From the NCBI GenBank assembly GCA_021927905.1, contig BLLK01000004.1, forward strand, positions 1 through 30,766: a DNA stretch of 30,766 bases, given 5' to 3'. The first letter of the stretch is position 1, and the number at the start of each line of letters is the position of its first letter. The position numbers and the translations under genes were made by a program. Source of the stretch: Chaetoceros tenuissimus (Eukaryota > Bacillariophyta > Thalassiosirophyceae > Chaetocerotales > Chaetocerotaceae). The notes below the pieces were generated by a model, which made no database searches, was not told the DNA's origin, and saw only the letters and a program-made list of their open reading frames with translations. Shown one piece after another: positions 2,121 to 30,766 of this stretch.

Positions 2121-2392
2121 ATGATTCTTCTAGGTATTATCCACTGAACTCAGTGGATTTGAGTATGAATAATAGAGCTACATATGCAAAGGCGATGACT
2201 TCAGTTTCTGTACTTCTGACTCAACTCTGATGCAGACGTGATGCTCTGATACCCTTCAGGATCAAATACTATGTAAACATATAATAGTAATTATAGAGGT
2301 TATGAAGCTCAATACTGACCCCCCTGGAAAATTGGGAAAATTGGTGGTCCGCAGAGGCAAAACTTTCCACCGGAACCACTTTTTACGTAGGT

Positions 2393-2406
2393 GCCCCATG
2401 GGTCCT
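2393..2406. repeat. Inverted repeat arm, right (partner 1746-1759)
   Basis: Exact reverse complement of 1746-1759, 630 bp away. See the left arm. Confidence 0.5.

Positions 2407-3080: not shown

Positions 3081-3085
<5 letters not shown>

Positions 3086-3112
<27 letters not shown>
3086..3112. repeat. AT dinucleotide microsatellite
   Basis: About 13 AT units. The second copy of the block carries the same tract, of the same length, at 7287-7313, which argues that the two copies separated very recently, since such tracts mutate fast. Confidence 0.9.
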
Positions 3113-4086: not shown

Positions 4087-4770
4087 CCATCGGATATTCC
4101 ATCTGATCAACCATCTTCACTTCCGTCATCGATGCCATCAGATATTCCGTCAGACGTACCTTCTGATCAACCAAGTTCACTTCCATCATCTATACCATCA
4201 GATATTCCGTCAGACGTACCATCTGATCAACCAAGTGTGCTTCCGTCATCGATGCCATCAGATATTCCGTCAGACGTACCTTCTGATCAACCTAGTACCA
4301 CTCAGTCATCGATGCCATCAGATATTCCGTCAGACGTACCTTCTGATCAACCAAGCGTGCTTCCGTCATCGATGCCATCAGATATTCCGTCAGACATACC
4401 TTCTGATCAGCCATCTTCACTTCCGTCATCGATGCCATCAGATATTCCGTCGGACGTACCATCTGATCAACCAAGTGTGTTTCCGTCATCGATGCCATCA
4501 GATATTCCGTCGGACGTACCATCTGATCAGCCAAGTTCTGTTCCGTCATCTATACCATCAGATATTCCGTCAGACGTACCATCTGATCAACCAAGTTCAC
4601 TTCCGTCATCGATGCCATCAGATATTCCGTCAGACGTACCTTCTGATCAACCTAGTACCACTCCGTCATCGATGCCATCAGATATTCCGTCAGACGTACC
4701 ATCTGATCAGCCAAGTGTGCTTCCGTCATCGATGCCATCAGATATTCCGTCAGACGTACCATCTGATCAA
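4087..4770 (+). repeat. 60-bp tandem array, second gene A copy
   Basis: Eleven to twelve regular 60-bp units in register with no indels until about 4773. Variants such as AGTACCACT (PSTT) match the unit at the very start of the window, so this array and the one at 1-620 are close relatives or the same array seen twice. Confidence 0.95.
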
Positions 4771-5605
4771 CCAAATTGTGCTTCCGTCATCGATGCCATC
4801 AGATATTCCGTCCGGACGTACCATCCTGGTAACCAAGTGTGCTTCCGTCATCGATGCCATCAGATATTCCTTCAGACATACCTTCTGATCAACCAGAATT
4901 ATTAGCTTCCGTCATCGATGCCATCGAATATTCCGTCAGACGTACCATCTGATCAATATCGGATAGCTGGATCTTCCATCGGATATTCCTTCTGATATTC
5001 CATCTGACGTACCTTCAGACCAGCCTTCTTTGCTTCCGTCGTCTATTCCAAGCTCTATCCCATCATCTGAGCCTAGTAGTCTTCCATCTTCGGAGCCTAG
5101 TCTGGTTCCGTCGAGCGAACCGTCACTGCTTCCGTCGAATGCACCGTCGGTTCAGCCAAGCCGTTTTCCATCTTCAGTGCCTTCCTTGCTTCCTTCGAGC
5201 GAACCGTCACTACTTCCGAGCTCTGAGCCTTCTTTGCTTCCGTCATCCGAACCTTCTAGTGACCCGAGCTCTGAGCCTTCCAAATTACCAAGCCTATTGC
5301 CTTCTTTAGATCCTTCTTCTGAACCCTCTTTTCTACCTAGCTGCTCTGTTATGCCTACGGCACAACCTACTAAATATCCAAAGTCAGGATCTCAGAAGAA
5401 AGCAAAGTCTCAGAAAATATCTCTGTGTGGTTCGGAATCACCTTCTCTTTCTCCTACGGCTGAAAAAGATGCTCCAAGTGACCAAATGGACGATTCGGGT
5501 AATGGCGTGGCGGCCTCTAGCAAAGAAAGTAGTGGTAGTATTTCTCCGAAAACCTTTTTCTGCCTTGTAACTACAATCGTGGGAAGTATAATACTCCTCG
5601 TGTAA
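4087..5605 (+). pseudogene. Gene A 3' part, second copy, frame broken in the array
   Basis: From 4087 about eleven 60-bp units read [12 protein letters not shown] in one frame. Near 4773 a +1 insertion (ccaaattgtgc for ccaagtgtgc) starts a 200-bp stretch of indels (to about 4969). The PSXX frame resumes in another phase from about 4985 and runs through a C-terminus identical to gene A, with the same hydrophobic tail and stop at 5605. An ATG-started ORF exists from 4018, but its first ~23 codons come from duplicated 3' flank, so this is a junction product and not a real N-terminus. Either a broken tandem gene or an assembly join through the array. Confidence 0.75.
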
Positions 5606-7281
5606 AGGTCCACAAGCAGTCCAATGTGTACGTAGACCTAATGTCTATAAGTCTATTATCTCAATAATTTCATTCAGTATTCCTATTTCCTTACTTACTT
5701 CAGTGGAAATGACAACATCTTTCAAATCTTTATGAAGGCAGATTCAGTTCAAAATAGCTATTTTACATTTGCTTTTTTGATGAAAAAACAATCTTTCGAA
5801 ACATTATAATAGTAAAGTAGTATTACTTGGCTCTTGTTTTGCTGCATAATCTTAAATAAGGAACCCACAAAAGGGGAAATTCCCCCCCCCCCCCTCCCAA
5901 TATACTTGTTGTATCGTAAAGAATTGACCTGCAACAAAGGAAATACAGGACCCATGGGGCTCCGTACAAACTTGCAGTATGGTAAAAAAAGTAGGTGTGG
6001 CGGTGCAAAACTTTCCAGGGGGGTGGAAAACTGCTTATTAACCGCTACAAAACTTTCTACCCACATGGAAAATTCCTTTACAAGTCGAGAAATTACATAG
6101 ATTAACAAAATACAACTTTCTAAAACCCCTAACTTATCATTTTATATATTTAATATTCTACTTCAAAATGTAATGATGTGATTGCTGTAATTGATTTGAT
6201 CATATAACATTTTCTTACGTTCACCCCGTCAACTACTTCATTGTTGTATGATTTCATTCTGATCAGGAATTTTCCATCCCTTTTTTAAAGCGGACTTTTC
6301 CATCCCTTTTTTAAAGCGGACATGATTCTTCTAGGTATTATCCACTGAACTCAGTGGATTTGAGTATGAATAATAGAGCTACATATGCAAAGGCGATGAC
6401 TTCAGTTTCTGTACTTCTGACTCAACTCTGATGCAGACGTGATGCTCTGATACCCTTCAGGATCAAATACTATGTAAACATATAATAGTAATTATAGAGG
6501 TTATGAAGCTCAATACTGACCCCCCTGGAAAATTGGGAAAATTGGTGGTCCGCAGAGGCAAAACTTTCCACCGGAACCACTTTTTACGTAGGTGCCCCAT
6601 GGGTCCTGGAAATACTCCAAATTTTCATGAGTATGTTCAATTTATGGACTCGGTTTCTTCGCTGCTGCCTCCTTCTCAAGTTGGGGGGCTTTTTGAAATG
6701 CTAGCTACTCCAAAAGATAATCGAGGTAAAAGGAATTATCCATGCATCTCCTCTTAGACGGTTTAGAAGAATATGCGCATGAACTAATGAAGTGAAGATT
6801 ATTTCGAAAATGTCGTAACTTTAACGTGACCAAATTCTTAAGGGAAACAATTACATGTCTATCTTCCCCAACAATTGTATTCTATTTCGAGGTTAGGGAC
6901 GATAACTGAAAATACTATCAACTCAAATAGAAGTCAGGAGATACAGCGTAAATGAAGTCTTGCTTCAGGATGAAGTTGTAAAAATGAGGTCAGCACAGTC
7001 GATTGACCAAATTAATAAATCTAGAAGAAGTGAGAAATCTACAGTACTATTCTATAGTATAAATATGACAGACCTACAAAGAAAGAAGTCACTCAGTAGA
7101 AGCAACAACTTGAGAAGCCAATCATGCTTATAGATGTGCCAACCTCAGATATGTTATCGGATTGAGCAATTAACAGTGACTTCACGACGTAAAGATCATG
7201 TCGAATATTGACTCTCCCTCGAGAATGCAAATATTAGTTTGTGCAATATGCAAGAGTGACATTGAATAATAGTCAGTACAC

Positions 7282-7313
<32 letters not shown>

Positions 7314-8287
7314 ACTCATTGATTATAGTTATTACCATTATAATATAAATGGGGAAAAGAAATGACCAGTACAAAGTACTTTTATAGTCGTTCTTATATG
7401 AAGGGCACAACCTTCTTCGAAAACCGTAGCCGTTGTTTAAAAGGCGACATGAAGCTAAAGAATCAATTTTTAGTTTCGCTGCCCATTCCCTAGATTTTAC
7501 CTTTAATTTTTCTAATTGAAATTTTCTACTACCTGATGGAGACGTCCATATTCCTAGCATTTCCTTGTATTGAGAGTTGAGTCTTTGTAGTCAGTACACA
7601 TTTCAACGCAACCAAACCATAGCATCAAATGGTTTCAGAAAATTGAAAGCTACTTATCCTTCAAGTGCAAGAATGCCGAATTTCCTCTCCACTATTTGGG
7701 AGAGCATGATGTTGTACCACAGAACAAGAAACGTTGTGTAGCCTCAATTCATAAAACAATAGAAATAATACTCTTGTTTAGATATGTTTCAAAGTAAAAG
7801 CAAGTAGACAAGACCAAGAAAGGCCTAGACGAAGAATTATCAATACCACAACAAATGAAATCATACACTCCCTCCTTTCTTGTCTTCAAGTTTCCCATAC
7901 AATAAAATGAAAAAGAAACTTCGTTCATTAGTTAATATATCTGCAAGTCAAGATCAGACATTACAGGTTGCTGAGTAAGACCAAACCAGTCTTTGCCTCG
8001 ATGAGATCATTCTGTATTATGCTCTGGTCTAAACTAATTTGCTTGGATAATGAAGAAGGTTACATCTTTCATTGTGCTATTAGCCTCCAGACTGAATTTT
8101 AATCGTGCATAGAACAATATCTCGGAGTTCGAGGTATTTCCATCGTTATTTCTGGCATCAATCTGAAACGTTCGAGAAATCACTGAAGTCGAGCCTAGAA
8201 TGACTAGAAAGCAAGTGGATGACACGTTTCCTACCTATTTCTACCTCCATGACCAGCCATTCAAATGAAATTTTGATGAAGGGTGCT
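4970..8287. repeat. Segmental duplication, copy 2 (3.3 kb)
   Basis: Partner of 768-4086. Homology starts inside the array (gatcttccatcgg) and stops at 8287 after gggtgct, where this copy continues into unique DNA (ggtcctgcagg). The poly-C tract has 13 C (5882-5894). Confidence 0.93.
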
Positions 8288-12412: not shown

Positions 12413-14619
12413 TATATAACACAAGATTACTAAGATTATGAATACCTAAAAAGGTTTCGTCTTACAGCCAAATGGTATCTTTTAAAATCTCACTGTTGAA
12501 ATACGGCCCTAAGCGATCATGCGCTAAGTGTCCGCACTTCTAAAGAAGAGAGCTAGATTCCCGCTCCTTCAGCAACCTATGTTGCCGAACAAGAGGAGTC
12601 TGAGCATGCTATCAAAGCCTATGTCCTTTTGATTGGATCGAGACCGATCCATTCTCTGAGTATGTCATTATGTGAAAACTCATCGACAGGAGCATCCATG
12701 TGTGCTTCTCTAGCTGAGCGAATAAGTAAGAGCCATTCCTTTTTTGTTTCGGTAGAAAGATCTTGTATAGTGTTAGGGTCCAAACGAAAGTGATGTGAAT
12801 AAATAGAACGTGGTAGGGATCGTAAGCCCCTGCTTAATTCTATTTTGATTGACCGTTCCAGGGATTCTAGACCCCTAAATTCATCAATGGTGCTAGTATT
12901 GTGGAGCAGCCTATTACGTTCTGCCCACATTTGGTATGTCATGTTCCAAAGTTTGGTAATGACATGCTTAGCCCAAGCCGTACCCGTACGTCTGGACTGA
13001 AGCTGATTGTAATAAGTATGTTGATAACGGATTATATCCTTGTGTATGAATCCCAAAATGGTTGAATACCAACCAACATTGTTCTGTTTAGAAGCTATTG
13101 GAAGGAAATCTCTGGATAGGTTAACTGGTATAATGCCTCTATCGGGATTGTCCATCCAACTTCGAATGCCGGCAACTAAGAAATTTCTTAGCTGAGGTTC
13201 TGTGTCAATGGAAGCCATGAAAGTGTCGAATTCTGTGAGCAATGTCTCTCTGAAGCAGTTTGTATCGGGACAGGACATAAGGTGTACAGTAGTCTCTTCT
13301 GCTATCTTACAACAAGGGCAAAGGCTTGTGTTGGAATGTTGTCTCTTTTCAAGATTTGTTCCTGTAGGGAGATCATTTGCCATAAGTTTGGTAATAAAAC
13401 GATTTTGTTTGAAGGAGCGTTCCTTGCGCGCGCGTCGTATACTTGTCCAACCTATGTCTTGTTGAAGAATTGTGGAGGAGACTCCAGTCACTTCAGACCA
13501 GTAATCACAGACTGTGCGTTTATCCAAAACTGAAGTAATCGCTGGAGTCAAATTAGAGGTGATATTGACTGCATCGATTTTGATTGTGGAGATGCCGACC
13601 TCTCTGGAAAAATCTGTTGGTGGTAGGGCTGTAAAGTAATATGTTGCTATTTCTTTAGCATAATCATCTGCAATACAGTTCAGATGTTCCAAAAAGGTAA
13701 GGGGTCTATAAAGTTCATCAGCGTGTCCTTTGACCTTTGTAGGTTGTGGGGAGTATGGAACTTCTTCCCATAGTTCTATCAGTGATGAAATAAGATCCAC
13801 AGAAGTGGTAGAGGACTTCAGATGAAAGCGTTTAAGATGGAGACACTCGACTGCACTATCATTATCACTGGCTGAAATGATGGAAGCTTGTGTTGGCTGT
13901 AGTAGGGGAGTTAGAGCTTCTATGCAGTTGACAATACCCACTAAGGATCCTATTTCACCTCTGTAGGAGTTGAGATCTTTTTCTAATCCTGGAATGTAGC
14001 CACCCCCTTTAATCCACTGCATGCCATCCTGGGAGCAGATGATCCAACCGCTTGTACAGATATTCATATGTTCAAAGTATGAGCCATCACCTACACAAAG
14101 GGCAGTACCATCCGCTATGTCCCGTAGTAAAATATCTATATCATCACTCATCTTGATAAATTGAAACAAGTACGGAATACGTGGCAAGTAGATGGTGTAA
14201 CGTCCCAGCCTCATTGTTTCTCTGTTACTATTCAGGAGGGTGAACACGGAAGAGGTCTGAGTGACATGTGAGAATTCTCCATCGTATTCTACTGTCACTC
14301 TTTCAATTGTATTTGGGTCTGGGCGTTGTGCTGCATTGTGATCTGTAGTAAATCTCGTTCGGCTTTGGAGATGTTGACTATAAGAGAACCAAGTGTCATC
14401 TTCCCGGTATAAAAGGCGAGTACCATCCCTCGTGCGAAACCAATTCCATTGATCAATCCAATCGGAGGCTGATTCAAGTTGCCATTGATAAAGAGTATGA
14501 TACATGTTAATGCCTTGGGGAAAAATCATATGCATTGCTTTAATCCAGACTTTATAGTCTTTTGATCGAATATCATGTTTGTCAGGCCAATTGAAGTTAT
14601 TCCTGTCTCCTTCAAAGAC
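12413..14619 (-). mobile_element. LINE-like retroelement insertion, 5'-truncated, 2.2 kb
   Basis: The segment lies between 20-bp exact direct repeats, and the related locus at 10253-10465 lacks it while matching both flanks. Read on the minus strand, it carries an uninterrupted coding stretch (RNase H, zinc knuckle, C-terminal region), then a ~200-bp 3' non-coding tail (12413-12618) ending in cttgtgttatata. That is the same 3' end as the decayed plus-strand fragments; there is no poly-A. The fixed 3' end, variable 5' end and long target-site duplication fit target-primed non-LTR retrotransposition with 5' truncation. No terminal inverted or long repeats were seen. The open frame suggests a recent insertion. 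Confidence 0.82.
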
Positions 14620-14664
14620 TATATATTGGAAAACTTTCACAAAGAATTCGTCTTGGTTATCCAT
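12619..14664 (-). CDS. RNase H / zinc-knuckle C-terminal part of a non-LTR retrotransposon polyprotein
   Basis: 681 codons. A type 1 RNase H domain spans about residues 185-345 with the full acidic set: D193 (in GDGSY), E237, D269 (in NDSAVE), H314 (in VKGHADE) and D333 (in NCIADDYA). A zinc knuckle follows (C449-x2-C452-x8-H461-x3-C465), then the WAERN-type segment near 580 seen after such knuckles in LINE proteins. No reverse transcriptase motif or endonuclease is present. The RNase H-then-knuckle order resembles I/Tad-type LINEs more than plant L1. Residues 1-15, including the ATG, are encoded by target DNA and the target-site duplication; element sequence starts at residue 16. The ORF is therefore a truncated polyprotein tail given a start by chance. 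Expression and function are doubtful. Confidence 0.8.
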   Translation of the reverse strand: MDNQDEFFVKVFQYIVFEGDRNNFNWPDKHDIRSKDYKVWIKAMHMIFPQGINMYHTLYQWQLESASDWIDQWNWFRTRDGTRLLYREDDTWFSYSQHLQSRTRFTTDHNAAQRPDPNTIERVTVEYDGEFSHVTQTSSVFTLLNSNRETMRLGRYTIYLPRIPYLFQFIKMSDDIDILLRDIADGTALCVGDGSYFEHMNICTSGWIICSQDGMQWIKGGGYIPGLEKDLNSYRGEIGSLVGIVNCIEALTPLLQPTQASIISASDNDSAVECLHLKRFHLKSSTTSVDLISSLIELWEEVPYSPQPTKVKGHADELYRPLTFLEHLNCIADDYAKEIATYYFTALPPTDFSREVGISTIKIDAVNITSNLTPAITSVLDKRTVCDYWSEVTGVSSTILQQDIGWTSIRRARKERSFKQNRFITKLMANDLPTGTNLEKRQHSNTSLCPCCKIAEETTVHLMSCPDTNCFRETLLTEFDTFMASIDTEPQLRNFLVAGIRSWMDNPDRGIIPVNLSRDFLPIASKQNNVGWYSTILGFIHKDIIRYQHTYYNQLQSRRTGTAWAKHVITKLWNMTYQMWAERNRLLHNTSTIDEFRGLESLERSIKIELSRGLRSLPRSIYSHHFRLDPNTIQDLSTETKKEWLLLIRSAREAHMDAPVDEFSHNDILREWIGLDPIKRT
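14620..14639. repeat. Target-site duplication, right copy
   Basis: Exact partner of 12393-12412. The following bases (caaagaattcgtcttgg) continue the pre-insertion locus as seen at about 10273. Confidence 0.85.
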
Positions 14665-14864
14665 ACAGAGTTCTTTGGTTTGTAGCTTGTAGCCATCTGG
14701 AGAAATTGCGGCATATTATACTTATCTTCCTTTGGAAGAGGCTTTATTTTTGCCGTGCTATTGATGCAAAGCAATTGAACATTTATTACTCAGTACAATC
14801 TGATCTACGTAGCACGAACGTTTTGTTTACTTGCTGAAAGATATTTGAGAAGTACAAGTAGTCG

Positions 14865-16047: not shown

Positions 16048-18219
16048 TCACCAATTCCGCCAGTCGCTAAATGGCCGCTTTGAGAAAGCCAATTCTTCTT
16101 CATTCTGAGAAGATTTAGCATCCTCATCAGTGAGGCTGTTCTCAGCAGGCTTAAAGACAATATAAGCTGTAGCTCCAATTGCACCAACACTAGCAATGGC
16201 CTCCATAGATGTGAGTCCAGCGAATACAAGGGTTGTAAAAGTGCCTACTTCAGCTCCTACTGCGCCCATAAGAGCACCTACACCGGCTAAGGCGAATGGC
16301 ATCGCTACGGTAGTTCCAACAGCAATTGAGGTCCCAAGTGCGAACGTCTTGATCTTATCTGAACTGACAGCACGAGGCATACAAGGATCTAGCTTCCAAA
16401 TTTCCTGCTTCGATAGTGCACTGGACCCATAGAGCTCTTCTTCTGTATCCTTTTCTTTTTTCATCAAATTCTTCAACTTTTCAGTAGTTTTCGTGCTTAC
16501 ATTATGATCACTATCCACTACTTTTGGTCTATAAGATAAATATTTGTTGTGCAACTTGGATTTGAAAGTAGTACCTCCTTCCTCATCTTTAGATCTATCC
16601 ATGATCCATTCAGTTGATGCATCATGGATATCGTCCAGTAAAGAGATACATCCATCACTCGCACAGCTAATGTACTGCACCTTTGTCTGTTTTGAGGAAT
16701 TCTTTGCCACACATAATTTTGTAATGTTATCATCAAAACGGAGCAGTTGTACTTTGGTATTCTTTCTCAGATTTGTAGTCACTTGCGGGAATGGACCTAT
16801 CGATTTTGGTTTGCTTTCTTCGGACTCTTGTAGGTCGATGGAAAGGAAAAAATAGGATTGTGAATGTCCAGCTTCCAATTGCCATACAATTGTGTCTTTC
16901 TCTTCTATAAAGTTTTGGCCTCCATCCTTCATTTTACTTTGCATGGCTTGTGTTCTTGATTGAATATTTTTCTTTGCACCATCCCAACTTTTACTCATGG
17001 AAGCGCGAAGGGATTTCCAATCTTTGGGAGTATTGGGTCTTTTTGTAACTGTTTTCTTCGTCGAGTCCAGTTCATTCTTGCATTGGTTTTCTTCGCCAGG
17101 AAGATACGTTCGAAGTTCACGATTATTCCGGATAGAGAGCAGTCTACCAAAAGTTTTGCTCCGAATGACTACTCCATCCCCATTTGAAGCTTTCTCAATT
17201 GCCCATTTGCAGCATCGATATTCAGAGCCTAAAATATTTTCTTCTTCTTGTGTCTTGTTGTCGTCTAGATTCTCCTTTCTATAGTCCAAAAAGGATTCTG
17301 CATGTGAACATGTGCCAACATTTCCATCTTTGGTAGAGTACAATAGCCACTGACTGTGCATCCAACTTGATATCTTTACATATCCATTTCCAGCTTCCAT
17401 AAATCGAAACAATTCCCATCCCTTCATGCTAGGAGTGGTTGCCAAAATCCCAGTCATATCACATCGAATCCTCAGATCTAAGGATGGACTAGACATGAAA
17501 CAAAGCTCTCCAGTGACACATTCAATGGTCCATAGGGTAAATGAAGGAGGACAATCATGGTCTTGATCATTTGCGAAAATAATTTTCCCCTCATTATTGA
17601 TTCCGAGGTTATAACCTGCACTCAATGATTTCAACAGTACTCTCTGATTATCAAGAGAATCACTAACTCCTTTGATAAAACACCACTTTCTATCATCTTC
17701 CTTGATGTCTTGATACTTTTGGTTCGGAGAACTCAAGATATCTTCTTGTAAAGAATCTGCATCGTCATCTTCTCCATCTTCTTTTGGCGCCATGGAATTA
17801 TCATCAAGTATCAAATCCTCTTCTTCTTCTTCATCTGTCTTGACACAGGAAACAAAGCATCGACTTGGGTCAGTTTCATCTGAAGACTCACTAGCATTCA
17901 TCATTTCTTTTCTCAATGTCAGTACTCCTCCAAATTTATGATGCCGAATCATGACACTACCAGTATCATCGTACTCTAGCCTGAATTCATCTTTATCATT
18001 ACGTTTCCTACGAGTAATGATTTTGCCATGACGCTTGCATCCCCATAGATAATATCCATTGCAGTGTAGTGTCACTCTTAGAGGATTCTCAATGATTGGA
18101 AATCTAGTTTTGCTGTTACTTGGAATACTTGTAAGGATATTACCCGTTTCTGTACTGGTGTTGGAAGTGATGCTGGAATCACTTGGACTTACAACTATGT
18201 CAGCTTCTTCTGTCGACAT
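16048..18219 (-). CDS. Beta-trefoil-like repeat protein with hydrophobic Gly/Ala-rich C-terminus
   Basis: Intact, intronless, 723 residues, non-repetitive DNA. The N-terminal ~40 residues are Ser/Thr-rich with no signal peptide. Then come scattered segments of the 'G-x-Y-L-x...G-x-I' type seen in fascin/actin-crosslinking beta-trefoil folds: NGYYLWGCKRHGKI (54-67), KFGGVLTLR (95-103), AGYNLGINNEGKI, TFGRLLSIRNN and LHNKYLSYRP. A very acidic linker lies at ~128-160. From about 626 to 690 the chain is hydrophobic, rich in Gly, Ala and Val, long enough for two or three membrane passes and vaguely like ISG12/IFI6 segments. It ends in an acidic stretch and a basic-aromatic tail, KRPFSDWRNW. Inference: a membrane-associated protein with a cytosolic trefoil region; the substrate is unknown. 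The start is the first ATG after an upstream AT-rich region. Fold assignment is by motif impression only. Confidence 0.8.
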   Translation of the reverse strand: MSTEEADIVVSPSDSSITSNTSTETGNILTSIPSNSKTRFPIIENPLRVTLHCNGYYLWGCKRHGKIITRRKRNDKDEFRLEYDDTGSVMIRHHKFGGVLTLRKEMMNASESSDETDPSRCFVSCVKTDEEEEEDLILDDNSMAPKEDGEDDDADSLQEDILSSPNQKYQDIKEDDRKWCFIKGVSDSLDNQRVLLKSLSAGYNLGINNEGKIIFANDQDHDCPPSFTLWTIECVTGELCFMSSPSLDLRIRCDMTGILATTPSMKGWELFRFMEAGNGYVKISSWMHSQWLLYSTKDGNVGTCSHAESFLDYRKENLDDNKTQEEENILGSEYRCCKWAIEKASNGDGVVIRSKTFGRLLSIRNNRELRTYLPGEENQCKNELDSTKKTVTKRPNTPKDWKSLRASMSKSWDGAKKNIQSRTQAMQSKMKDGGQNFIEEKDTIVWQLEAGHSQSYFFLSIDLQESEESKPKSIGPFPQVTTNLRKNTKVQLLRFDDNITKLCVAKNSSKQTKVQYISCASDGCISLLDDIHDASTEWIMDRSKDEEGGTTFKSKLHNKYLSYRPKVVDSDHNVSTKTTEKLKNLMKKEKDTEEELYGSSALSKQEIWKLDPCMPRAVSSDKIKTFALGTSIAVGTTVAMPFALAGVGALMGAVGAEVGTFTTLVFAGLTSMEAIASVGAIGATAYIVFKPAENSLTDEDAKSSQNEEELAFSKRPFSDWRNW

Positions 18220-18403
18220 TTTTTATGGAGTTGTAAAAAGATTCTCTATAGCTATAAATATCTTTAATATAAATGTTAAGCTTCATCCATAGATATAAAT
18301 ATGGACCATAAATATATCTACAACACATGGCGTAGCAGAGAAAAGAAAAAAAGATTTTGTTCTATTTTCATTTGTTCTTTGTTCTTTCAACGATGAATGA
18401 GTA

Positions 18404-20336: not shown

Positions 20337-23300
20337 ATGAAGTTTGCTTTAGCTCTCCAAACATTGAAACTGATGCTGATTGTATCAAAGGTGAAAGGAC
20401 AGGTAACTACTACCGCAAGTCCAACTACCAGTGCAATTCCAAGTATCAGTCCAAGTACCAGTGCAGTTCCAAGTGTCAGTGCTTCTCCCACTGCAGTTCC
20501 AAGCATCAGTGCAAGTCCAAGTACTAGTGCAGCCCCTACTTGTATTGATGAACCTGGCTGGGTTGATAATACTGGAAGGACCTGTGAGCAGGTTGAAGAA
20601 CGAGTAGCTTTTTACGCTACTAATTATAGTATCAATTACTGTGATCTACTACCTCCAGATTACAGAAATCTTGATAAGAGTATTTATGAAGCATGCTGTA
20701 TTTGCGGAGGATCTATTCATCAGACTCGTTTCCCAAGTTCAGTGCCTTCATCTATGCCGTCATTACTCCCGTCTTCGGAACCATCCTTAGCACCAAGTTC
20801 AATGCCGTCATCTGAACCAAGTCTTCTTCCATCTTCGGAACCAAGTCTTCTTCCTTCAAGTGAGCCATCATCTGTGCCTTCTGGTAAGTTATGCTTTAGA
20901 GGAGGAATAATCCGAATGTAGTATTATATAAATACAACCACTGACCTTTTATTTGTAAATGCTTTTTCAACAAAGATGTACCTAGCGATATCCCGTCGGA
21001 TGTACCTTCCTCGGCACCTTCCAGCCTACCAAGTCTTTTTCCATCTTCGGAGCCTTCCATGATTCCGTCAGATGAGCCAAGTCTTCTTCCTTCGGACGAA
21101 CCGTCTGAATCAACCAAACCATCCATCACTCCATCTGATGTACCTTCATCCGAGCCGAGTGATTTACCATCTTTCATCCCTTCCGCGATTCCATCTGGAC
21201 TCCCTTCTTCTATGCCTTCTGCGCTTCCGTCACTTGTTCCATCAGGAACACCATCTGACATTCCATCAGATATTCCATCGGATCAGCCATCTTCAACCCC
21301 ATCTGATATTCCATCTGCATCCTTGGTGCCATCCGTAGGACCGTCTTCCGAACCGTCCTCCGAACCGTCCATGGAACCTAGTGATGAACCATCGGATCAG
21401 CCATCTTCACTTCCGTCCTCGATGCCTTCTGATATTCCGTCAGACGTACCATCGGATCAGCCATCTTCACTTCCGTCCTCGATGCCTTCTGATATTCCGT
21501 CAGACGTACCTTCAGATCAGCCAAGTTTGCTTCCGTCCTCGATGCCTTCTGACGTTCCTTCAGATATTCCATCTGATCAACCATCTTCACTTCCGTCCTC
21601 GATGCCTTCTGATGTTCCTTCAGACGTACCATCTGATCAACCATCTTCACTTCCGTCCTCTATGCCTTCTGATGTTCCGTCAGACGTACCTTCAGATCAA
21701 CCAAGTTCAGCTCCGTCCTCGATGCCTTCTGATGTTCCGTCAGACGTACCTTCAGATCAACCATCTTCACTTCCGTCCTCGATGCCTTCTGACATTCCGT
21801 CCGACGTACCATCTGCTCAACCTTCATCTTTTCCGTCATCGATGCCATCAGACGTACCGTCAGACATACCAAGTGATCAGCCTTCATCTGCTCCGTCATC
21901 GATGCCATCAGATATTCCGTCAGACATACCATCTGATCAACCATCTTCACTTCCGTCCTCGATGCCATCAGATATTCCGTCAAACGTACCATCTGATCAA
22001 CCATCTTCACCTCCGTCATCGATGCCAAGTGACATTCCGTCAGACGTACCATCTGATCAACCTTCTGTGCTTCCGTCATCGATGCCAAGTGACATTCCGT
22101 CAGACGTACCATCTGATCAACCTTCTGTGCTTCCGTCATCTGAGCCAAGTTTTGTTCCATCTTTTGAGCCATCATCTCTTCCGTCAGACGTACCAAGTGA
22201 TTTTCCTTCTAGTAAGCCATCTGTCACTTCCCTCCCATCTTTGGAGCCTTCATCGTCTCCTTCGGTCTGTGTTGATGAACCGGGCTGGTTAGATAGATTC
22301 AATAGAAATTGTACTGTGGTGGCAGAGAAGGTAGCACTTTATGAGCCTTACTGTGGTTTAGGTGATCACATATATCTTGACAAGTCTATTTATCAAGCAT
22401 GTTGTGCATGTGAAGGCTCTATTCATCAGACCCGTTTTCCAAGTATGGTACCATCGGACGAACCATCTGCTCTTCCGTCTTTGGAACCTTCCGATAAACC
22501 AAGTTTGACACCGTCATCTGAACCGAGTAGATTTCCATCTTCAGAACCTTCATCAACACCATCATATGAACCATCTTCAATGCCGTCATTAGAGCCAAGT
22601 CTACTTCCTTCTTCAGAGCCTTCTCTCTCACTGAATCCTTCTGAGAGTCCATCAGGAACCCCTTCTTCTGAACCATCTCAAGTCCCTTCGAAGTTGCCAA
22701 GTATGCTACCGTCACTATTGCCTTCTTCTCAGCCAAGTGACCAACCTTCATTACTACCATCCAGTGCACCTTCTTTGACACCAAGTGATATACCTTCAGA
22801 TATTCCATCGGATCAACCAAGTTCAATTCCGTCATCTATGCCTTCTGATGTTCCGTCAGATGAACCATCGGATCAGCCTTCATCTGCTCCGTCTTCCGGG
22901 CCAAGTTCACTTCCTTCATCGATGCCATCAGATATTCCGTCAGACATACCATCTGATCAACCATCTTCACTTCCGTCATCTATGCCAAGTGACATTCCGT
23001 CAGACGTACCTTCAGATCAACCATCTTCACTTCCGTCCTCGATGCCTTCTGACATTCCGTCAGACTTACCTTCAGATCAACCAAGTGTGCTTCCGTCATC
23101 TATGCCATCAGATATGCCAAGTGACATTCCATCAGACATACCATCTGATCAACCATCTTCACTTCCGTCATCTATGCCAAGTGACATTCCGTCAGACGTA
23201 CCTTCAGATCAACCATCTTCACTTCCGTCATCGATGCCAAGTGACATTCCGTCAGACGTACCTTCAGACGTACCATCTGATCAACCATCAGTGCTTCCGT

Positions 23301-25017
23301 CATTTATGCCAAGTGATATTCCGTCAGACGTACCAAGTGATCAACCATCATGCTTCCGTCATCTATGCCAAGTGACATTCCGTCAAACGTACCTTCAGAT
23401 CAACCAAGTGTGCTTCCGTCATCTATGCCAAGTTCTGTTCCATCAGACATTCCTTCAGACGTACCTTCAGATCAACCAAGTTCACTTCCGTCATCTATGC
23501 CATCAGATATTCCGTCAGACGTACCATCTGATCAACCAAGTGTGCTTCCGTCATCTATGCCAAGTGACATTCCGTCAGACGTACCTTCAGATCAACCAAG
23601 TTTTTTCCCTTCTACTGTGCCTTCTCTTTCATCATATCCATCTTCTGAACCATCTTTGCAACCTACAGTTTGTGAAAATGATCCCAGTTGGTTCGGTCCA
23701 AACTTCAATTGCACTATAATCGATCTTCTTATTAAAGATGCGTCAGATGAAGCTTTATTTTGTAATTCATGGGAGGGACCATATGAAAATGAAAAAACGA
23801 TTTTTCAAGCATGTTGTTCTTGTGGAGGATCGATTCATCAGTCTCGGTTTCCTTCTTTTGTCCCCTCAGACCAACCTTCACTTAATCCAAGTGCAGAACC
23901 AAGTCTTTTGCCATCTTCATCACCATCCTCCCTTCCATCTTTGCAACCATCAACAACTCCTTCATTAGAACCAAGTAAAGAGCCATCGGATCAACCGTCA
24001 TCACTTCCGTCATCGATGCCAAGTTCACTTCCTTCAGACGTACCATCTGACCAACCATCTGCACTTCCATCATCGATGCCAAGTGATTTACCATCAGATA
24101 TTCCGTCAGACGTACCATCAGATCAACCAAGTTCTGTTCCGTCATCGATGCCATCAGATATTCCGTCAGACGTACCATCTGATCAACCAAGTTCTGCTCC
24201 GTCATCGATGCCATCAGATATTCCGTCAGACGTACCATCTGATCAACCAAGTTCTGTTCCGTCATCGATGCCATCAGATATTCCGTCAGACGTACCATCT
24301 GATCAACCAAGTTCTGTTCCGTCATCGATGCCATCAGATATCCCGTCAGACATTCCATCAGATATTCCTTCTGACCAGCCTAGTTCAAAGCCGTCATCTG
24401 AACCAAGCCTCTTACCATCGTCGATTCCTTCAGTGGTTCCATCAAGCGAGCCATCTTTTGAGCCAAGTCAATTTCCATCTTTTGAGCCCTCTCTATTACC
24501 TTCAAATGAACCATCTTTTTTGCCTTCCGATTTTCCTTCTGAATGCTTTAACGATCCTACATGGAATCTGACGGGATTTGACTGTGAGGAAGCAGAATAT
24601 GTAGTAAGCATAGGAGTTTTTACTCAAACTGAAGTCTGCGAAGGTTACAAACTTCCTAAAACAGCTGAGTTTTCCCACGACAAACAAATCGATAGAGCAT
24701 GTTGTATTTGTGGCGGATCAATCTACCAATCAAGATTTCCTTCTACTTTTCCATCTGCACAACCTTCGAGTCTACCAAGTTCTGAGCCATCATTGAATCC
24801 TTCTTCATTACCTAGCCTCATGCCTTCATCAGAACCAAGTACAATTCCATCATCAAAACCTTCTTTACTTCCTTCATCTATGCCAAGCTCGATGCCTTCA
24901 AGTGAACCAAGTCTTTTGCCAACACTTTCCATGATCCCATCCAATGAACCTTCTTCTAGACCATCTGATCAGCCAAGTCAAGTTCCGAGTAACATTCCTT
25001 CTGATCAACCAAGTGGC
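20337..25017 (+). CDS. Gene B: secreted PSXX-repeat protein with four six-cysteine modules (one frameshift)
   Basis: Start ATG at 20337; the N-terminus ([20 protein letters not shown]) looks like an ER signal peptide. A Ser/Thr/Pro linker and Cys module 1 follow in exon 1 (20337-20883). Exon 2 starts at 20976 in the matching phase. PSXX linkers alternate with modules at about residues 69, 614, 1082 and 1373, so about 1,530 residues are visible. At 23350 one G is missing (ccatcatgc for ccatcagtgc). Upstream the frame is codon phase 2 and downstream phase 1, and both sides read PSXX, so a single-base error or mutation is the simplest reading. The frame is lost in the damaged array after about 25017. 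General architecture (Pro/Ser-rich linkers, Cys modules) recalls diatom pleuralins and other girdle-band or adhesive proteins, though the Cys pattern differs. Probably a cell-wall or mucilage protein; inferred. Confidence 0.75.
20541..20738 (+). other. Six-Cys module 1
   Basis: Begins CIDEPGW and ends [16 protein letters not shown]. Cys spacing C-x13-C-x18-C-x17-CC-x-C. Confidence 0.9.
20884..20975 (+). other. Intron, 92 bp, phase 1
   Basis: 5' site G|GTAAGT and 3' site CAAAG|AT. Unspliced, the frame gives a short non-PSXX tail and a stop near 20921. Spliced, it reads [15 protein letters not shown], restoring the tetrapeptide period exactly. Confidence 0.9.
21390..22140 (+). repeat. 60-bp tandem array, gene B linker 1
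   Basis: About twelve regular 60-bp units encoding [20 protein letters not shown] variants, without frame damage. The nucleotide consensus is close to that of the gene A arrays, but units are more varied here (gatgttcc, gacattcc, cctcgatgc), suggesting an older, less homogenised array. Confidence 0.93.
22268..22444 (+). other. Six-Cys module 2
   Basis: Begins CVDEPGW and ends [17 protein letters not shown]-x13-C-x13-C-x15-CC-x-C. Most similar to module 1 (LDKSIYxACC in both). Confidence 0.9.
22790..23600 (+). repeat. 60-bp tandem array, gene B linker 2
   Basis: PSXX units with 12-bp length variation between modules 2 and 3. Contains the one-base deletion at 23350. Confidence 0.9.
23671..23856 (+). 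other. Six-Cys module 3
   Basis: Begins CENDPSW and ends [17 protein letters not shown]-x12-C-x16-C-x16-CC-x-C. Lies just after the frameshift but is intact. Confidence 0.9.
23990..24390 (+). repeat. 60-bp tandem array, gene B linker 3
   Basis: Between modules 3 and 4; four near-identical units from about 24110 to 24350, then irregular PSXX. Confidence 0.9.
24544..24744 (+). other. Six-Cys module 4
   Basis: Begins CFNDPTW and ends [17 protein letters not shown]-x12-C-x17-C-x20-CC-x-C. The most diverged module. Confidence 0.9.
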
Positions 25018-27480
25018 TTCGTCATCGATGCCATCAGATATTCCGTCAGACGTACCTTCAGATCAACCAAGTGTGCTTCCGTCATCGATGCCATCAGATA
25101 TTCCGTCAGACGTACCTTCAGATCAACCAGAAGCTTCCGTCATCGATGCCATCAGATATTCCGTCGACGTACCCTTCAGCATCAGTAAGCTTCTGTCATC
25201 GATATTCCGTCAGACGTACCTTCAGATCCAACCATCAGTGCTTCCCGTCATCGATGCCATCAGATATTCCGTCAGGACGTACCTTCAAATCAACCATCAG
25301 TGCTTCCGTCATCGATGCCATCAGATATTCCGTCAGACGTACCTTCCAGATCAACCAACCAAGTGCTTCCGTCATCTATGCCATCAGATATTCCCGTCAG
25401 ACGTACCTTCAGATCAACCATCAGTGCTTCCGTCATCGATGCCATCAGATATTCCGTCAGACGTACCTTCAGATCAATCCATCAGTGCTTCCGTCATCAA
25501 TGCCATCAGATATTCCGTCACGTACATTGCCTTCAGAGATCAACCATCAGTGCTTCCGTCATCTATGCCATCAGATATTCCGTCAGACGTACCCGTCAAA
25601 TTATTAGCTTCGTCATCTGTATGCATCAGATATTCAATCGGGCGTACCTTCAGATCAACCAATTATTAGCTTCCGTCATCTATGCCATCAGATATTCCGT
25701 CAGACGTACCTTCAGATCAACCAAGTGTGCTTCCGTCATCTATGCCATCAGATATTCCGTCAGACGTACCTTCAGATCAACCAAGTGTGCTTCCGTCATC
25801 GATGCCATCAGATATTCCGTCAGACGTACCTTCAGATCAACCATCAGTGCTTCCGTCATCGATGCCATCAGATATTCCGTCAGACGCACCTTCAGATCAA
25901 GCCATCAGTGCTTCCGTCATCTATGCCATCAGATATTCCGTCAGACGTACCTTCAGATGCAAGTGTGCTTCGTCATCTATGCCATCAGATATTCCGTCAG
26001 ACGTACCTTCAAGGATCAACCAAGTGTGCTTCCGTCATCGATGCCATCAGATATTCCGTCAGACGTACCTTCAGATCAATCCAAGTGTGCTTCCGTCATC
26101 TATGCCATCAGATATTCCGTCAGACGTACTTCAGATCAACAGAGTGACAGCTTCCGTCATCGATGCCATCAGATATTCCGTCAGAAGGCATTACCTTCAG
26201 ATCAGATATTCCGTCAGACGTACCTTCAGATCCGCGTGCTTCCGTCATCGATGCCACAGATATTCCGTCAGACGTACGCTTCAGATCAACCAAATTGCTT
26301 CCGTCGCCGATGCCATCAGATATTCCGTCAGACGTACCTTCCAGATCCATCAGTGTGCTTCCGTCATATGCCATCAGATGTTCCGTCAGACGTACCTTCA
26401 GATCAACTCATCAGTGCTTCCGTCATCTATGCCATCAGATATTCCGTCAGACGTACCTTCCAGATCAACCAAGTTGCTTGTCATCTATGCCATCAGATAT
26501 TCCGTCAGACGTACCTTCAGATCAACCAGAGTGTGCTTCCGTCATCTATGCCTCAGATATTCCGTCAGACGTACCTTCAGATCAACCAAGTGTGCTTCCG
26601 TCATCTATGCCATCAGATATTCCGTCAGACGTACCTTCAGATCAACCAAGTGTGCTTCCGTCATCTATGCCATCAGATATTCCGTCAGACATACCTTCAG
26701 ATCAACCAAGTGTGCTTTCCGTCATCTATGCCCCATGAATCGATATTCCGTCAGACGCAACTTCAGATCAACCAAGTAGGTATTGCTTCCGTCATCTATG
26801 CCATCAGATATTCCGTCAGACGTACCTTCAGATCAACTAAGTGTGCTTCCGTCATCGATGCCATCAGATATTCCGTCAGACGTACCTTCAGATCAACCAT
26901 CAGTGCTTCCGTCATCTATGCCATCAGATATTCCGTCAGACGTACCCTTCAGATCAACAAGTGGCTGCGTCTGTCTGATGCCATCAGATATTCCGTCAGA
27001 CGTACCTTCAGATCAACCATCAGTAGCTTCCGTCATCTGTGCCATCAGAGTTTCCGTCAGACGTACCAGATCAACCATTAAGTGTGCTTCCCGTCATCGA
27101 TGCCATCAGATGTTCAAAATCTGAACAATGCCTTCAGATCAACCATCATTGCTTCCGTCATCTATGCCATCAGATATTTCCGTCAGACGTACTTCAGATC
27201 AACCATCAGTGCTTCCGTCATCTATGCCATCTGTGGATATTCCGTCAGACGTACCTTCAGATCTTAAATTGTGCTTTAAATTCAGTCATCTATGCCATCA
27301 GATATTCCGTCAGACGTACCTTCAGATCAACCAAGTGTGCTTCCGTCATCGATGGCATCAGATATTCCCGTCAGACGTACCCTTCAGATCAACCAAGTGT
27401 GCTTCCGTCATCATCGATGCCATCAGATATTCCGTCAGACGTATCGATGTCATCGATGCTATCAGATATTCCGTCAGACG
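25018..27480 (+). pseudogene. Indel-ridden 60-bp array (gene B continuation)
   Basis: Every stretch is recognisably the 60-bp unit (ccatcagatattccgtcagacgtacc core), but most units carry small insertions or deletions: for example an extra C near 25229 and 25246, an extra G near 25276, a lost T near 26257. The PSXX frame therefore appears only in short patches in all three phases. Substitutions are comparatively rare. Adjacent arrays with the same unit are clean. Either an unpolished long-read stretch or a slipping, inactivated array. It should not be read as separate genes; long ORFs here are alternative-frame readings of the same repeat. Confidence 0.8.
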
Positions 27481-28670
27481 TACCATCTGATCAACTATCT
27501 TCACTTCCGTCATCGATGCCATCAGATATTCCGTCAGATGTACCATCAGATCAACCATCTTCACTTCCTCATCGATGCCATCAGATATTCCGTCAGATGT
27601 ACCATCTGATCAACCATCAGATATTCCGTCATCTATGCCATCAGATATTCCGTCAGACGTACCATCTGATCAGCCATCAGTGCTTCCGTCATCGATGCCA
27701 TCAGATATTCCGCGACGTACCATCTGATCAACCAAGTGTGCTTCGCGTCATCTATGCCATCAGATAATCCGTCAGACATTCCTTCAGATCAGCCAAGTCT
27801 GCTTCCGGTCAACGATGCCATCAGATATTCCATCTGATGTACCTTCACCAATAAGTTTGCTTCCGTCATCGATGCCTTCAGACATTCCATCCGACATACC
27901 TTCAGATATTCCATCTGATGTACCTTCAGACCAGCCAAGTTTGCTTCCCAGCAAACTTCCTTCCACACAACCTTCAAGTTTCCGTCTCTTACGCCATCAT
28001 CTCAACCTAGCAAACTTCCTTCCAAGCCAACCTTCATTAACTCCATCTACTTTACCAAGCTCTTTCCCATCATCTCAGCCTAGCAAATCTCAACTTCCCT
28101 CAGTAGTACCAAGCTTGTCTTTCGAGCCTAGTATGTCTGATCATCCCCTCACTGCAACCATCTACATCACCAAGTTCTACACCATCAACACATTAGAGCC
28201 TTCTTTGCAAACCATCTGTTTCTTTTAATGCCATCTGAGAATCCAACAGGACCAAAGTTAAGACCCAACAACAGTTGTTTGTACAGTATGTTCAAGCAAA
28301 TGTTTCAATTCAACTAATGGAGACTTGAAGAAGATGAGAAAAATGTTTTTAATAATCAATTGAAATATGTTGATTGAATGGAGAATTTACAGACAGCATT
28401 CTTGAATTATCAACAAGTGTCACAAACGATGATTGTTCTTCCTCCCAGAATACTCAAAGACGAATATTAGGAGATCAATTATTATTATCAAGTACACATA
28501 GTGATTGATGTCGTTGTTGACAATAATGAGACAGTGGCCTTACCTGATTCATTGACCGTAACAAAAAATATGGAAGATGCATTGAACGATCTTAATCAAA
28601 ACTTGGAACTGTATGGCATAACAGTGGTTGAAATTCAACATTTTTCAGAAGAACCTTCAACTTTGCAAGT
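27480..28670 (+). pseudogene. Damaged copy of the array plus CxxC domain (partner 28757-29950)
   Basis: Collinear with 28757-29950 at an offset close to 1280, but with frame-breaking changes, including in non-repetitive sequence: ggagacttgaag for ggagacttggcag near 28325, gttgattg for gttggattg near 28370, cttcctcccag for ctccatgccag near 28440, ttaggagatc for ttacagggagatc near 28469 and cacatagtg for caatagtg near 28496. 28501-28665 is clean and identical to 29781-29945; a C is then missing at about 28666. Confidence 0.85.
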
Positions 28671-30766
28671 TCTGTTCCATCAGATATTCCGTCAGACGTA
28701 CCATCTGATCAACCATCTTCACTTCCGTCATCGATGCCATCAGATATTCCGTCAGACGTACCATCTGATCAACCATCTTCACTTCCGTCATCGATGCCAT
28801 CAGATATTCCGTCAGATGTACCATCAGATCAACCATCTTCACTTCCGTCATCGATGCCATCAGATATTCCGTCAGATGTACCATCTGATCAACCATCAGA
28901 TATTCCGTCATCTATGCCATCAGATATTCCGTCAGACGTACCATCTGATCAACCATCAGTGCTTCCGTCATCGATGCCATCAGATATTCCGTCAGACGTA
29001 CCATCTGATCAACCAAGTGTGCTTCCGTCATCTATGCCATCAGATAATCCGTCAGACATTCCTTCAGATCAGCCAAGTCTGCTTCCGTCAACGATGCCAT
29101 CAGATATTCCATCTGATGTACCTTCAGACCAGCCAAGTTTGCTTCCGTCATCGATGCCTTCAGACATTCCATCCGACATACCTTCAGATATTCCATCTGA
29201 TGTACCTTCAGACCAGCCAAGTTTGCTTCCCAGCAAACTTCCTTCCACACAACCTTCAAGTTTTCCGTCTCTTACGCCATCATCTCAACCTAGCAAACTT
29301 CCTTCCACACAACCTTCATTAACTCCATCTACTTTACCAAGCTCTTTCCCATCATCTCAGCCTAGCAAATCTCAACTTCCCTCAGTAGTACCAAGCTTGT
29401 CTTTCGAGCCTAGTATGTCTGATCATCCCTCACTGCAACCATCTACATCACCAAGTTCTACACCATCAACCACATTAGAGCCTTCTTTGCAACCATCTGT
29501 TTCTTTAATGCCATCTGAGAATCCAACAGGACCAAAGTTAAGAGCAACAGTTGTTTGTACAGTATGTTCAAGCAAATGTTTCAATTCAACTAATGGAGAC
29601 TTGGCAGAAGATGAGAAAAATGTTTTTAATAATCAATTGAAATATGTTGGATTGAATGGAGAATTTACAGACAGCATTCTTGAATTATCAACAAGTGTCA
29701 CAAACGATGATTGTTCTCCATGCCAGAATACTCAAAGACGAATATTACAGGGAGATCAATTATTATTATCAAGTACAATAGTGATTGATGTCGTTGTTGA
29801 CAATAATGAGACAGTGGCCTTACCTGATTCATTGACCGTAACAAAAAATATGGAAGATGCATTGAACGATCTTAATCAAAACTTGGAACTGTATGGCATA
29901 ACAGTGGTTGAAATTCAACATTTTTCAGAAGAACCTTCAACTTTGCCAAGTTCTGTTCCATCAGATATTCCGTCAGACGTACCATCTGATCAACCATCTT
30001 CACTTCCGTCATCGATGCCATCAGATATTCCGTCAGACGGACCATCTGATCAACCATCTTCACTTCCGTCATCGATGCCATCAGATATTCCGTCAGACGT
30101 ACCATCTGATCAACCATCTTCACTTCCGTCATCGATGCCATCAGATATTCCGTCAGACGTACCATCTGATCAACCAAGTTCTGTTCCGTCATCGATGCCA
30201 TCAGATATTCCGTCAGAAATACCATCTGATCAACCAAGTTTGCTTCCGTCATCGATGCCATCAGATATTCCGTCAGACGTACCTTCAGATCAACCAAGTT
30301 TGCTTCCGTCATCGATGCCCTCAGACATTCCATCGGATATTCCATCAGATATTCCATCTGATGTACCTTCAGACCAGCCAAGTTTGCTTCCGTCATCGAT
30401 GCCCTCAGACATTCCATCGGATATTCCATCAGATATTCCATCTGATGTACCTTCAGACCAGCCAAGTTTGCTTCCGTCATCGATGCCTTCAGACATTCCA
30501 TCGGATATTCCATCAGATATTCCGTCGGATATTCCATCTGACCAACCAAGTTTGCTTCCGTCATCGATGCCTTCAGACATTCCGTCGGATATTCCATCAG
30601 ATATTCCGTCGGATATTCCATCTGACCAGCCAAGTTTGCTTCCGTCATCGATGCCTTCAGACATTCCGTCGGATATTCCATCTGATATTCCATCTGACCA
30701 GCCAAGTTTGCTTCCGTCATCGATGCCTTCAGACATTCCGTCGGATATTCCATCTGATATTCCATC
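28632..30766 (+). CDS. PSXX-repeat protein with CxxC globular domain, partial (probable gene B 3' part)
   Basis: One frame stays open from just after a TGA at 28629 to the window end; the first in-frame ATG (28734) is a repeat Met, so the true start is probably far upstream. The order is seven regular PSXX units, irregular PSXX with KLPSTQPS motifs, a ~130-residue non-repetitive domain (29541-29934), then a second regular PSXX array to the edge. The stop lies beyond the window. A missing C near 28666 breaks the frame to the preceding domain copy. Together with gene B it could be one protein of several thousand residues: signal peptide, Cys modules, then repeated CxxC domains spaced by arrays. 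An extracellular location is inferred. Confidence 0.75.
29541..29934 (+). other. Unrecognised globular domain with paired Cys motifs
   Basis: About 130 residues. CTVC-SSK-C near the start and CSPC in the middle, then QRRILQGDQ, then an alternating hydrophobic strand pattern (TIVIDVVVDNN), an Asn/Asp-rich helix-like stretch (MEDALNDLNQNLE) and a final strand (GITVVEIQ). Two strand/helix pairs suggest a small alpha/beta fold. I cannot name a family. An identical C-terminal half occurs at 28501-28665. Confidence 0.7.
29946..30766 (+). repeat. 60-bp tandem array to window end
   Basis: Regular PSXX units, clean in frame. From about 30320 the unit lengthens by whole 12-bp steps to [17 protein letters not shown]-type forms of 72 to 84 bp, repeated with few changes, showing recent expansion of a longer variant. 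Confidence 0.92.

What the first reader, a model, noticed from the sequence alone, without database searches (positions are those of the whole stretch)
20337..25017. Beads-on-a-string secreted protein: four six-Cys modules in PSXX linkers
Four modules share C-x-[DN]-[DE]-P-[GST]-W, spacing C-x12-13-C-x13-18-C-x15-20-CC-x-C, and a near-invariant end ACCxCxGSI[HY]Q[ST]RFPS that runs straight into PSXX linker. All six cysteines are kept in all four despite divergence elsewhere, which implies disulfide-stabilised folding under selection. The architecture recalls pleuralin-type diatom wall proteins, but this Cys pattern is not one I can name.
Basis: partly seen in the sequence, partly recalled or inferred. 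Interest (0 to 1): 0.75.

Follow-up and report, generated by a model that had tools for sequence, protein, structure and literature searches.

The report
Diatom six-cysteine beads on PSXX strings
In DNA that very likely comes from the diatom Chaetoceros tenuissimus, four copies of a small six-cysteine unit sit between long proline-serine repeats in what is likely one secreted protein; similar units match at 202 places in the same genome, the domain libraries searched have no name for them, and the two that were modelled are predicted to fold into compact beads that would help hold the cell surface together.

Summary
Four modules (59-67 residues) at 20541-20738, 22268-22444, 23671-23856 and 24544-24744 carry six cysteines with the stated spacings, far above shuffled controls. 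They are not in one open frame: a predicted 92-base intron joins modules 1 and 2, a one-base frame change near 23,350 separates 2 and 3, and beyond 25,017 the contig is indel-rich. The genome matches the Illumina/MinION Chaetoceros tenuissimus assembly.

The module is widespread. Four single-module searches give 202 places in 78 clusters. Of 162 modules that include the first cysteine, 159 have six and three have seven. All 54 scored paralog pairs show dN/dS below 1, none from the window. Pfam, NCBIfam and PDB sequence searches gave no credible match. Two models are good (pLDDT 84.6 and 93.0), without a solved relative found. Some relatives add ricin-type lectin-like or ShK-like domains.

Best reading: a surface matrix protein whose disulfide-locked heads bind or cross-link along PSXX stalks. 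Pleuralin kinship is unsupported.

The parts
20337..20399 (+). Start codon and likely signal peptide ([21 protein letters not shown])
   Evidence: Sequence; hydropathy peak 1.84 over 9 residues; nearly unchanged in P0036 and P0037. No SignalP run.
20541..20738 (+). Six-Cys module W1
   Evidence: 96% and 83% identity over the searched region in P0036 and P0037
20739..20883 (+). PSXX linker, exon 1 part
   Evidence: 92% PSXX tetrads
20884..20975 (+). Predicted GT-AG intron of 92 bases, phase 1
   Evidence: GTAAGT donor; splicing keeps PSXX in frame over the 300 bases tested; the other AG tested gives a stop. No transcript.
20976..22267 (+). PSXX linker, exon 2 part, with a 60-base repeat unit
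   Evidence: 98% PSXX tetrads; TRF 21388-22137 period 60
22268..22444 (+). Six-Cys module W2
22445..23670 (+). PSXX linker; one-base frame change near 23,350
   Evidence: ORFs 20945-23716 and 23341-25185 overlap here in different frames; sequence
23671..23856 (+). Six-Cys module W3
23857..24543 (+). PSXX linker, 229 aa
   Evidence: 98% PSXX tetrads
24544..24744 (+). Six-Cys module W4
24745..25016 (+). PSXX linker up to the point where the readable frame is lost
   Evidence: 89% PSXX tetrads
25017..28660 (+). Indel-rich 60-base repeat array and a noisy copy of the downstream domain; probably unpolished long-read sequence or a misassembly
   Evidence: TRF 24997-27443: 78% matches, 11% indels, against 87% and 96% matches with 0% indels in arrays 21388-22137 and 24091-24363 (but 22906-23598, inside the gene, also shows 77% and 11%); 27449-29069 repeats 28727-30350 at 96.0%
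29523..29942 (+). 140-aa domain without Pfam name; membership of this gene uncertain
   Evidence: 14 match rows in the genome, some of them pieces of one copy; identical protein on contig C11; 0 Pfam families

Best explanation
Four six-cysteine modules joined by long PSXX linkers form what is likely one secreted diatom surface protein, in which the modules are predicted to be compact, likely disulfide-locked beads that would act as binding or cross-linking heads on extended, probably glycosylated stalks in the extracellular coat or cell wall. Shown here: the modules, their conserved cysteines, the PSXX linkers, the 202 matching places in the genome, and purifying selection between family paralogs. 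Predicted: the compact fold (AlphaFold models of W1 and of one canonical relative) and the intron between W1 and W2. Inferred: secretion (hydrophobic N-terminus only), disulfides (six conserved cysteines behind a likely signal peptide), linker glycosylation and extension (recalled behaviour of Pro/Ser-rich sequence), and binding by the heads (some relatives carry lectin-like domains). In this picture the PSXX stalk spaces the heads far apart (229 residues between W3 and W4, about 480 between W1 and W2), so one molecule could bridge several sites, whereas 21 of the 27 fetched own-genome ORFs with two or more modules keep them 13-30 residues apart.
For: Modules and linkers. Family size: 49 + 129 + 51 + 62 matches merge to 202 distinct places in 78 clusters (partial matches and a few with stops count). 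Cysteines: of 171 modules, 162 include the first cysteine; 159 of these have exactly six, 3 have seven (a profile search favours such hits, and the set has near-duplicates). Constraint: 97 paralog pairs were 60-97% identical, 54 had dS below 1.5, all 54 have dN/dS below 1, median 0.175 (25 of the 97 rows were printed; pairs share members). Window modules belong to the family: W1-W4 alone against 18 canonical modules gives probability 96.4%, E 1.3e-9 over 45 columns. Fold: pLDDT 84.6, pTM 0.65 for W1; 93.0, 0.74 for a canonical module. Partner domains, in sets that I picked because they looked promising: of 10 of 35 homologs scanned, ricin-type lectin over its cut-off in P0013 and below it in 3 more, B_lectin below cut-off in 2; of 10 own-genome ORFs scanned, ricin-type below cut-off in 5. 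Spacing of modules.
Against: The window modules match no lectin and no binding partner is known. No transcript joins the modules; the frame changes near 23,350 and the 3' part is unreadable. No localisation, proteome or expression data were reached; in the C. tenuissimus virus-infection transcriptome paper six cell-wall and lectin terms do not occur in the main text. Only one ricin-type match passes its curated cut-off. Purifying selection was not shown for the window's own modules. Disulfide geometry was not checked: no coordinates were at hand.
Confidence: 0.45

Rival explanations
1. A silica-bound wall protein that works like pleuralins: the protein is laid down in girdle or pleural bands and helps hold thecae together, the modules contacting silica or the organic matrix.
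For: Likely secreted, modular, Pro/Ser-rich plus Cys-rich repeats in a diatom-like genome; pleuralins are described as a proline-rich N-terminal domain followed by repeats of a roughly 90-aa PSCD domain (PMC4557024 passages).
Against: Module length 59-67 aa, not about 90; no PDB sequence match by profile; no silica, girdle or expression evidence was found.
Confidence: 0.22
2. A secreted recognition or defence protein: a large family of lectin-like and six-Cys heads binds bacteria, viruses or mating partners rather than building structure.
For: Large family with paired modules; lectin-like, PAN-like (below cut-off) and ShK-like partner domains in some relatives.
Against: Purifying rather than diversifying selection in all 54 scored pairs, a whole-module average that can hide single selected sites; no viral contig was confirmed to encode the module (65 pattern hits, none confirmed); no expression data.
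Confidence: 0.15
3. The gene copy in this contig is decayed or misassembled: modules are remnants and no full-length protein is made from it.
For: Frame change near 23,350; indel-rich array 25017-28660; contig ends inside repeats on both sides; right end 96.7% identical to contig C11, and a noisy domain copy with the same score and stop counts on C44. The published assembly is MaSuRCA from Illumina and MinION reads, merged by HaploMerger2, which makes sequence error in repeats likely.
Against: All four modules and every linker stretch measured up to 25,016 are free of stops in their own frame; exon 1 is kept in P0036 and P0037.
Confidence: 0.12
4. The module is a divergent ShK-type domain in which the C4-C5 and C5-C6 spacings have shrunk.
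For: Same six-Cys order, C-x-D start and C-x-W second cysteine in the canonical form; ShK-like domains occur in some of the same proteins; profile match of canonical modules to them, probability 33%, E 0.00045, over 17 columns.
Against: Window modules against the ShK-like set: probability 0.7%, E 0.077; module set A2: 12.9%, E 0.0022, first half only; 0 of 24 modules match Pfam ShK at E up to 1; no ShK structure among the fold matches shown (50 of 84, 1 of 1).
Confidence: 0.06

Closest known systems
Unnamed six-Cys module proteins (homologs P0001-P0037 and the paralogs in this genome)
   Same: C-x-D-x-x-x-W ... C ... C ... ACCxCGG core, six cysteines, modules flanked by PSXX or PT-like linkers
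   Different: Many have two to four modules 13-30 residues apart, and some add lectin-like, ShK-like or C-terminal Cys regions; the window gene has linkers of about 229-480 residues and the SI[HY]Q[ST]RFPS end
Pleuralins (PSCD domain), Cylindrotheca fusiformis
   Same: Modular, proline/serine-rich and cysteine-rich repeats in a diatom wall protein (PMC4557024 passages)
   Different: PSCD is about 90 aa; no sequence link found, none tested directly; wall attachment of the window protein unknown
ShK domain-like (PF01549)
   Same: Six cysteines with a C-x-D start in the diatom-type ShK-like domains found in some of the same proteins
   Different: Ends C-x3-C-x2-C rather than CC-x-C; no Pfam or profile match for the window modules
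Ricin-type beta-trefoil lectins (PF00652)
   Same: Found beside the module in relatives (P0013 over cut-off; others below)
   Different: A separate domain; not seen in the window modules
p130/p150 girdle proteins of Thalassiosira pseudonana
   Same: Diatom wall proteins of the girdle region (PMC4557024 passages)
   Different: Described by chitin-binding domains; no such Pfam match for 24 modules

Membership tests
Six-Cys ACCxCGG module family (defined here) | Six cysteines in order C..C..C..CC-x-C with tryptophan after the first | tested here: met
   All four window modules. Family: W in 164 of 166 and the CC-x-C cysteines in 171 of 171 aligned rows; the second-cysteine column holds C in only 122 of 153 because of alignment shifts, so cysteine counts per module are the better measure
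Six-Cys ACCxCGG module family (defined here) | Profile similarity to canonical members not in the window set | tested here: met
   A7 against A6: probability 96.4%, E 1.3e-9, 45 columns
Pleuralins / PSCD domain | PSCD domain of about 90 aa rich in P, S, C, D | tested here: not met
   Modules are 59-67 aa; definition from PMC4557024 passages
Pleuralins / PSCD domain | Sequence similarity to a pleuralin | tested here: inconclusive
   No pleuralin sequence was at hand; profile searches of all PDB chains found no relevant hit. That a PSCD structure is in the PDB is recalled.
Pleuralins / PSCD domain | Release from the wall only by HF | not testable with these tools
   Needs biochemistry
ShK (PF01549) | Pfam profile match | tested here: not met
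   0 of 24 modules at E up to 1; the four window modules 0 at E up to 10
ShK (PF01549) | C-x3-C-x2-C ending | tested here: not met
   Modules end CC-x-C
Ricin-type lectins (PF00652) | Beta-trefoil domain in the protein | tested here: not met
   Window modules: 0 families at E up to 10; between them lie PSXX linkers. The unreadable 3' part could not be tested. The lectin is seen only in relatives
Frustulin ACR domains | Acidic Cys-rich repeats of about 50 aa with calcium affinity | not tested
   Named from PMC4557024 passages; no frustulin sequence compared

The most novel reading that the evidence does not exclude
The module is a new small disulfide-rich fold, expanded to about 200 copies in one diatom genome, that serves as the standard extracellular head group of diatom surface proteins, as EGF or sushi modules do in animals; the window gene is its extreme form, with heads spaced hundreds of residues apart along a PSXX cable.
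Probability: 0.35. Interest if true: 0.75.

Novelty: new variant of a known kind. Interest (0 to 1): 0.52.

Why it matters
A six-Cys module that matches at 202 places in one genome, is under purifying selection between paralogs, folds confidently in prediction and is missing from Pfam and NCBIfam would give a name and a handle to dozens of likely surface proteins. It would make a concrete question testable: what do the repeated heads bind (glycans, silica matrix, each other), and does linker length set the spacing of contacts in the wall or between cells? It also warns that PSXX repeat genes can be broken in hybrid assemblies, so gene models for this family need checking.

Tried and rejected

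Data handling. One search kept modules with E below 1e-3 and more than 45 residues (171 of 172 hits below 1e-3, 173 in all); 9 of these lack the first cysteine, leaving 162. The set contains near-duplicates (for example three identical copies in L012). In one search partial matches and matches with stops count as places. The homologs and own ORFs scanned for partner domains were 10 of 35 and 10 of the 33 module ORFs, chosen because they looked as if they carried other domains.
Full report
WHERE IT IS. The window is a whole contig of 30,766 bases (C4) in a 41,027,912-base, 68-contig genome. Eleven silicon-transporter matches, all over the Pfam cut-off, mark it as diatom-like, although such transporters are also known in coccolithophores (PMC4742977, abstract start in a listing). 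The published Chaetoceros tenuissimus NIES-3715 assembly is 41 Mb with a largest scaffold of 4.46 Mb (PMC8613185; passages; sections 5 and 14); the longest contig met here is 4,456,483 bases. The paper counts 85 scaffolds against 68 contigs here, so identity is very likely, not proven. That assembly combines Illumina and MinION reads (MaSuRCA, then HaploMerger2), which suits the errors seen in the repeats.

THE OBSERVATION. The four modules are as described: C-x-[DN]-[DE]-P-[GST]-W, six cysteines, the stated gaps, and the end ACCxCxGSI[HY]Q[ST]RFPS. Leave-one-out profiles score the real modules at 74.1, 65.9, 54.7 and 47.1 bits against at most 10.7-13.1 for shuffles. Linker stretches from W1 to 25,016 are 89-98% PSXX tetrads, the stretch before W1 29%, with a 60-base unit.

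GENE STRUCTURE. The modules lie in three ORFs. A GTAAGT...AG intron of 92 bases at 20884-20975 would join exon 1 to the second ORF in frame; the alternative AG tested gives a stop. P0036 and P0037 match the window's exon 1 at 98% and 89% identity; P0036 reads into the same intron, so it comes from unspliced sequence and gives no splice evidence. Near 23,350 the frame changes by one base inside a repeat unit that is one base shorter than its neighbours. The array 24997-27443 has 11% indels (so has 22906-23598 inside the gene). The stretch 27449-29069 repeats 28727-30350 at 96.0%, and 28677-30766 is 96.7% identical to contig C11; a domain copy on C44 has the same score and the same stop counts as the noisy copy at 28243-28662. 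The 3' half of the gene is therefore unknown.

THE FAMILY. Searching the genome with W1 gave 49 matches. Three further single-module queries gave 129 (150 of 181 candidates scored), 51 and 62. Their union is 202 distinct places in 78 clusters; 108 were found only by the canonical query, and 15 by both W1 and the canonical query. An iterated profile over the fetched loci and homologs P0001-P0035 found 172 hits below 1e-3, 171 longer than 45 residues. Of the 162 that include the first cysteine, 159 have exactly six cysteines and three have seven; gaps range over 12-24, 7-23 and 14-20, then 0 and 1; W is kept in 164 of 166. The canonical form reads C-x-D-x-P-x-G-W-x-D-x-D-G-x-x-Y-N-C-x-W-Y...R-C...Y-G-D...N-F-G-x-T-A-N-E-A-C-C-x-C-G-G-G (18 sequences). 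A profile of the four window modules alone matches it with probability 96.4%. Among paralog module pairs 60-97% identical (97 pairs), 54 had dS below 1.5 and all 54 have dN/dS below 1, median 0.175. These pairs share members and none comes from the window, whose modules are at most 58% identical to any other fetched own-genome module.

ARCHITECTURE. In the fetched own-genome loci, window included, 33 ORFs carry 79 modules; 21 of the 27 ORFs with two or more modules keep them 13-30 residues apart. The window gene differs by its very long linkers: 229 residues between W3 and W4 and about 480 between W1 and W2. Partner domains, in sets picked for promise: of 10 of 35 homologs, ricin-type lectin over cut-off in P0013 and below it in P0021, P0024 and P0028, B_lectin below cut-off in P0024 and P0026; of 10 own ORFs, ricin-type lectin below cut-off in 5 and PAN below cut-off in 3; ShK-like domains in some relatives, 8 of 16 with weak Pfam ShK matches, best E 0.012. 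The window modules match none of these.

NAMES. No Pfam match for the four modules at E up to 10; for 24 family modules only five single-module chance hits each in Pfam and NCBIfam; none for seven canonical modules and two longer stretches; no PDB sequence for W1 or the 24-module profile, and five weak hits to unrelated enzymes for the canonical profile (best E 0.041). Other InterPro libraries were not available. I recall seeing canonical-type sequences among diatom hypothetical proteins, but no call supports that.

MECHANISM. I read the protein as a secreted surface or wall matrix protein: PSXX stalks, probably extended and glycosylated (recalled behaviour of Pro/Ser-rich sequence), present likely disulfide-locked heads that would bind matrix polymers or each other. 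The lectin-like partners of some relatives point to a sugar-rich setting. The pleuralin-like silica role, a recognition or defence role, and a decayed gene copy remain open, in that order.

LITERATURE. Ten searches (listings seen, most of them capped) showed no paper naming the module. Passages were seen in PMC4220933, PMC12618581, PMC7335047, PMC4557024, PMC7489238, PMC5525289 and PMC8027222; term searches in PMC12305248 and PMC11151724 found none of the terms. The Seminavis robusta genome paper reports ricin B-like lectins among tandem duplicates and a diatom-specific GDPH domain hypothesised to matter in adhesive proteins, a comparable case of surface-protein expansion.

On rereading I corrected wording that went beyond the calls (partner-domain sets were picked, not random; listings were capped; only two modules were modelled), dropped a remark on lysine content that no call tested, and ran to confirm that no window module entered the dN/dS pairs.

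Noticed in passing
1-4086 and 4166-8287: The first 4.1 kb, including a PSXX gene end and its downstream sequence, is repeated at 97.0% identity: a tandem duplication or two alleles left unmerged.
   Followed up: partly
1140-1400 and 5342-5602: A protein tail ending in a hydrophobic stretch (TFFCLVTTIVGSIILLV), like a GPI signal or membrane anchor, follows PSXX; a genome search matched it only at these two places.
   Followed up: partly
29523-29942: A 140-aa domain without a Pfam name has 14 match rows on C4, C11, C44, C48, C27, C32, C30 and C16, some of them pieces of one copy; the protein is identical on C11.
   Followed up: partly
16048-18222 (-): A 724-aa ORF has a ricin-type lectin-like match below its cut-off (E 0.0038), about 2 kb from the start of the module gene and on the other strand.
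   Followed up: no
12619-14715 (-): A 698-aa ORF matches the zinc-binding region of reverse transcriptases (zf-RVT, just over the cut-off): a retroelement copy or remnant.
   Followed up: no
L047 (G000:C8:104200-106800) and L056 (G000:C8:142500-144000): Tandem arrays of the canonical module with mostly short Ser/Pro-rich linkers, very similar to each other. Clusters on C14 and C27 have short open frames, some with stops: split by introns or decayed.
   Followed up: no
L045 (G000:C44:450500-459500): PSXX arrays next to ORFs of another kind, and a domain copy with the same score and stop counts as the noisy copy in the window, which suggests shared unpolished reads or a misassembly.
   Followed up: partly
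L017, L020, L036 and homologs such as P0016, P0020, P0024: A number of relatives have a short Cys region (DGxxCxYDxECxSGxC type) after the module pair, near the end of the ORF; the one piece sent to Pfam had mistyped first residues and gave no credible match.
   Followed up: no
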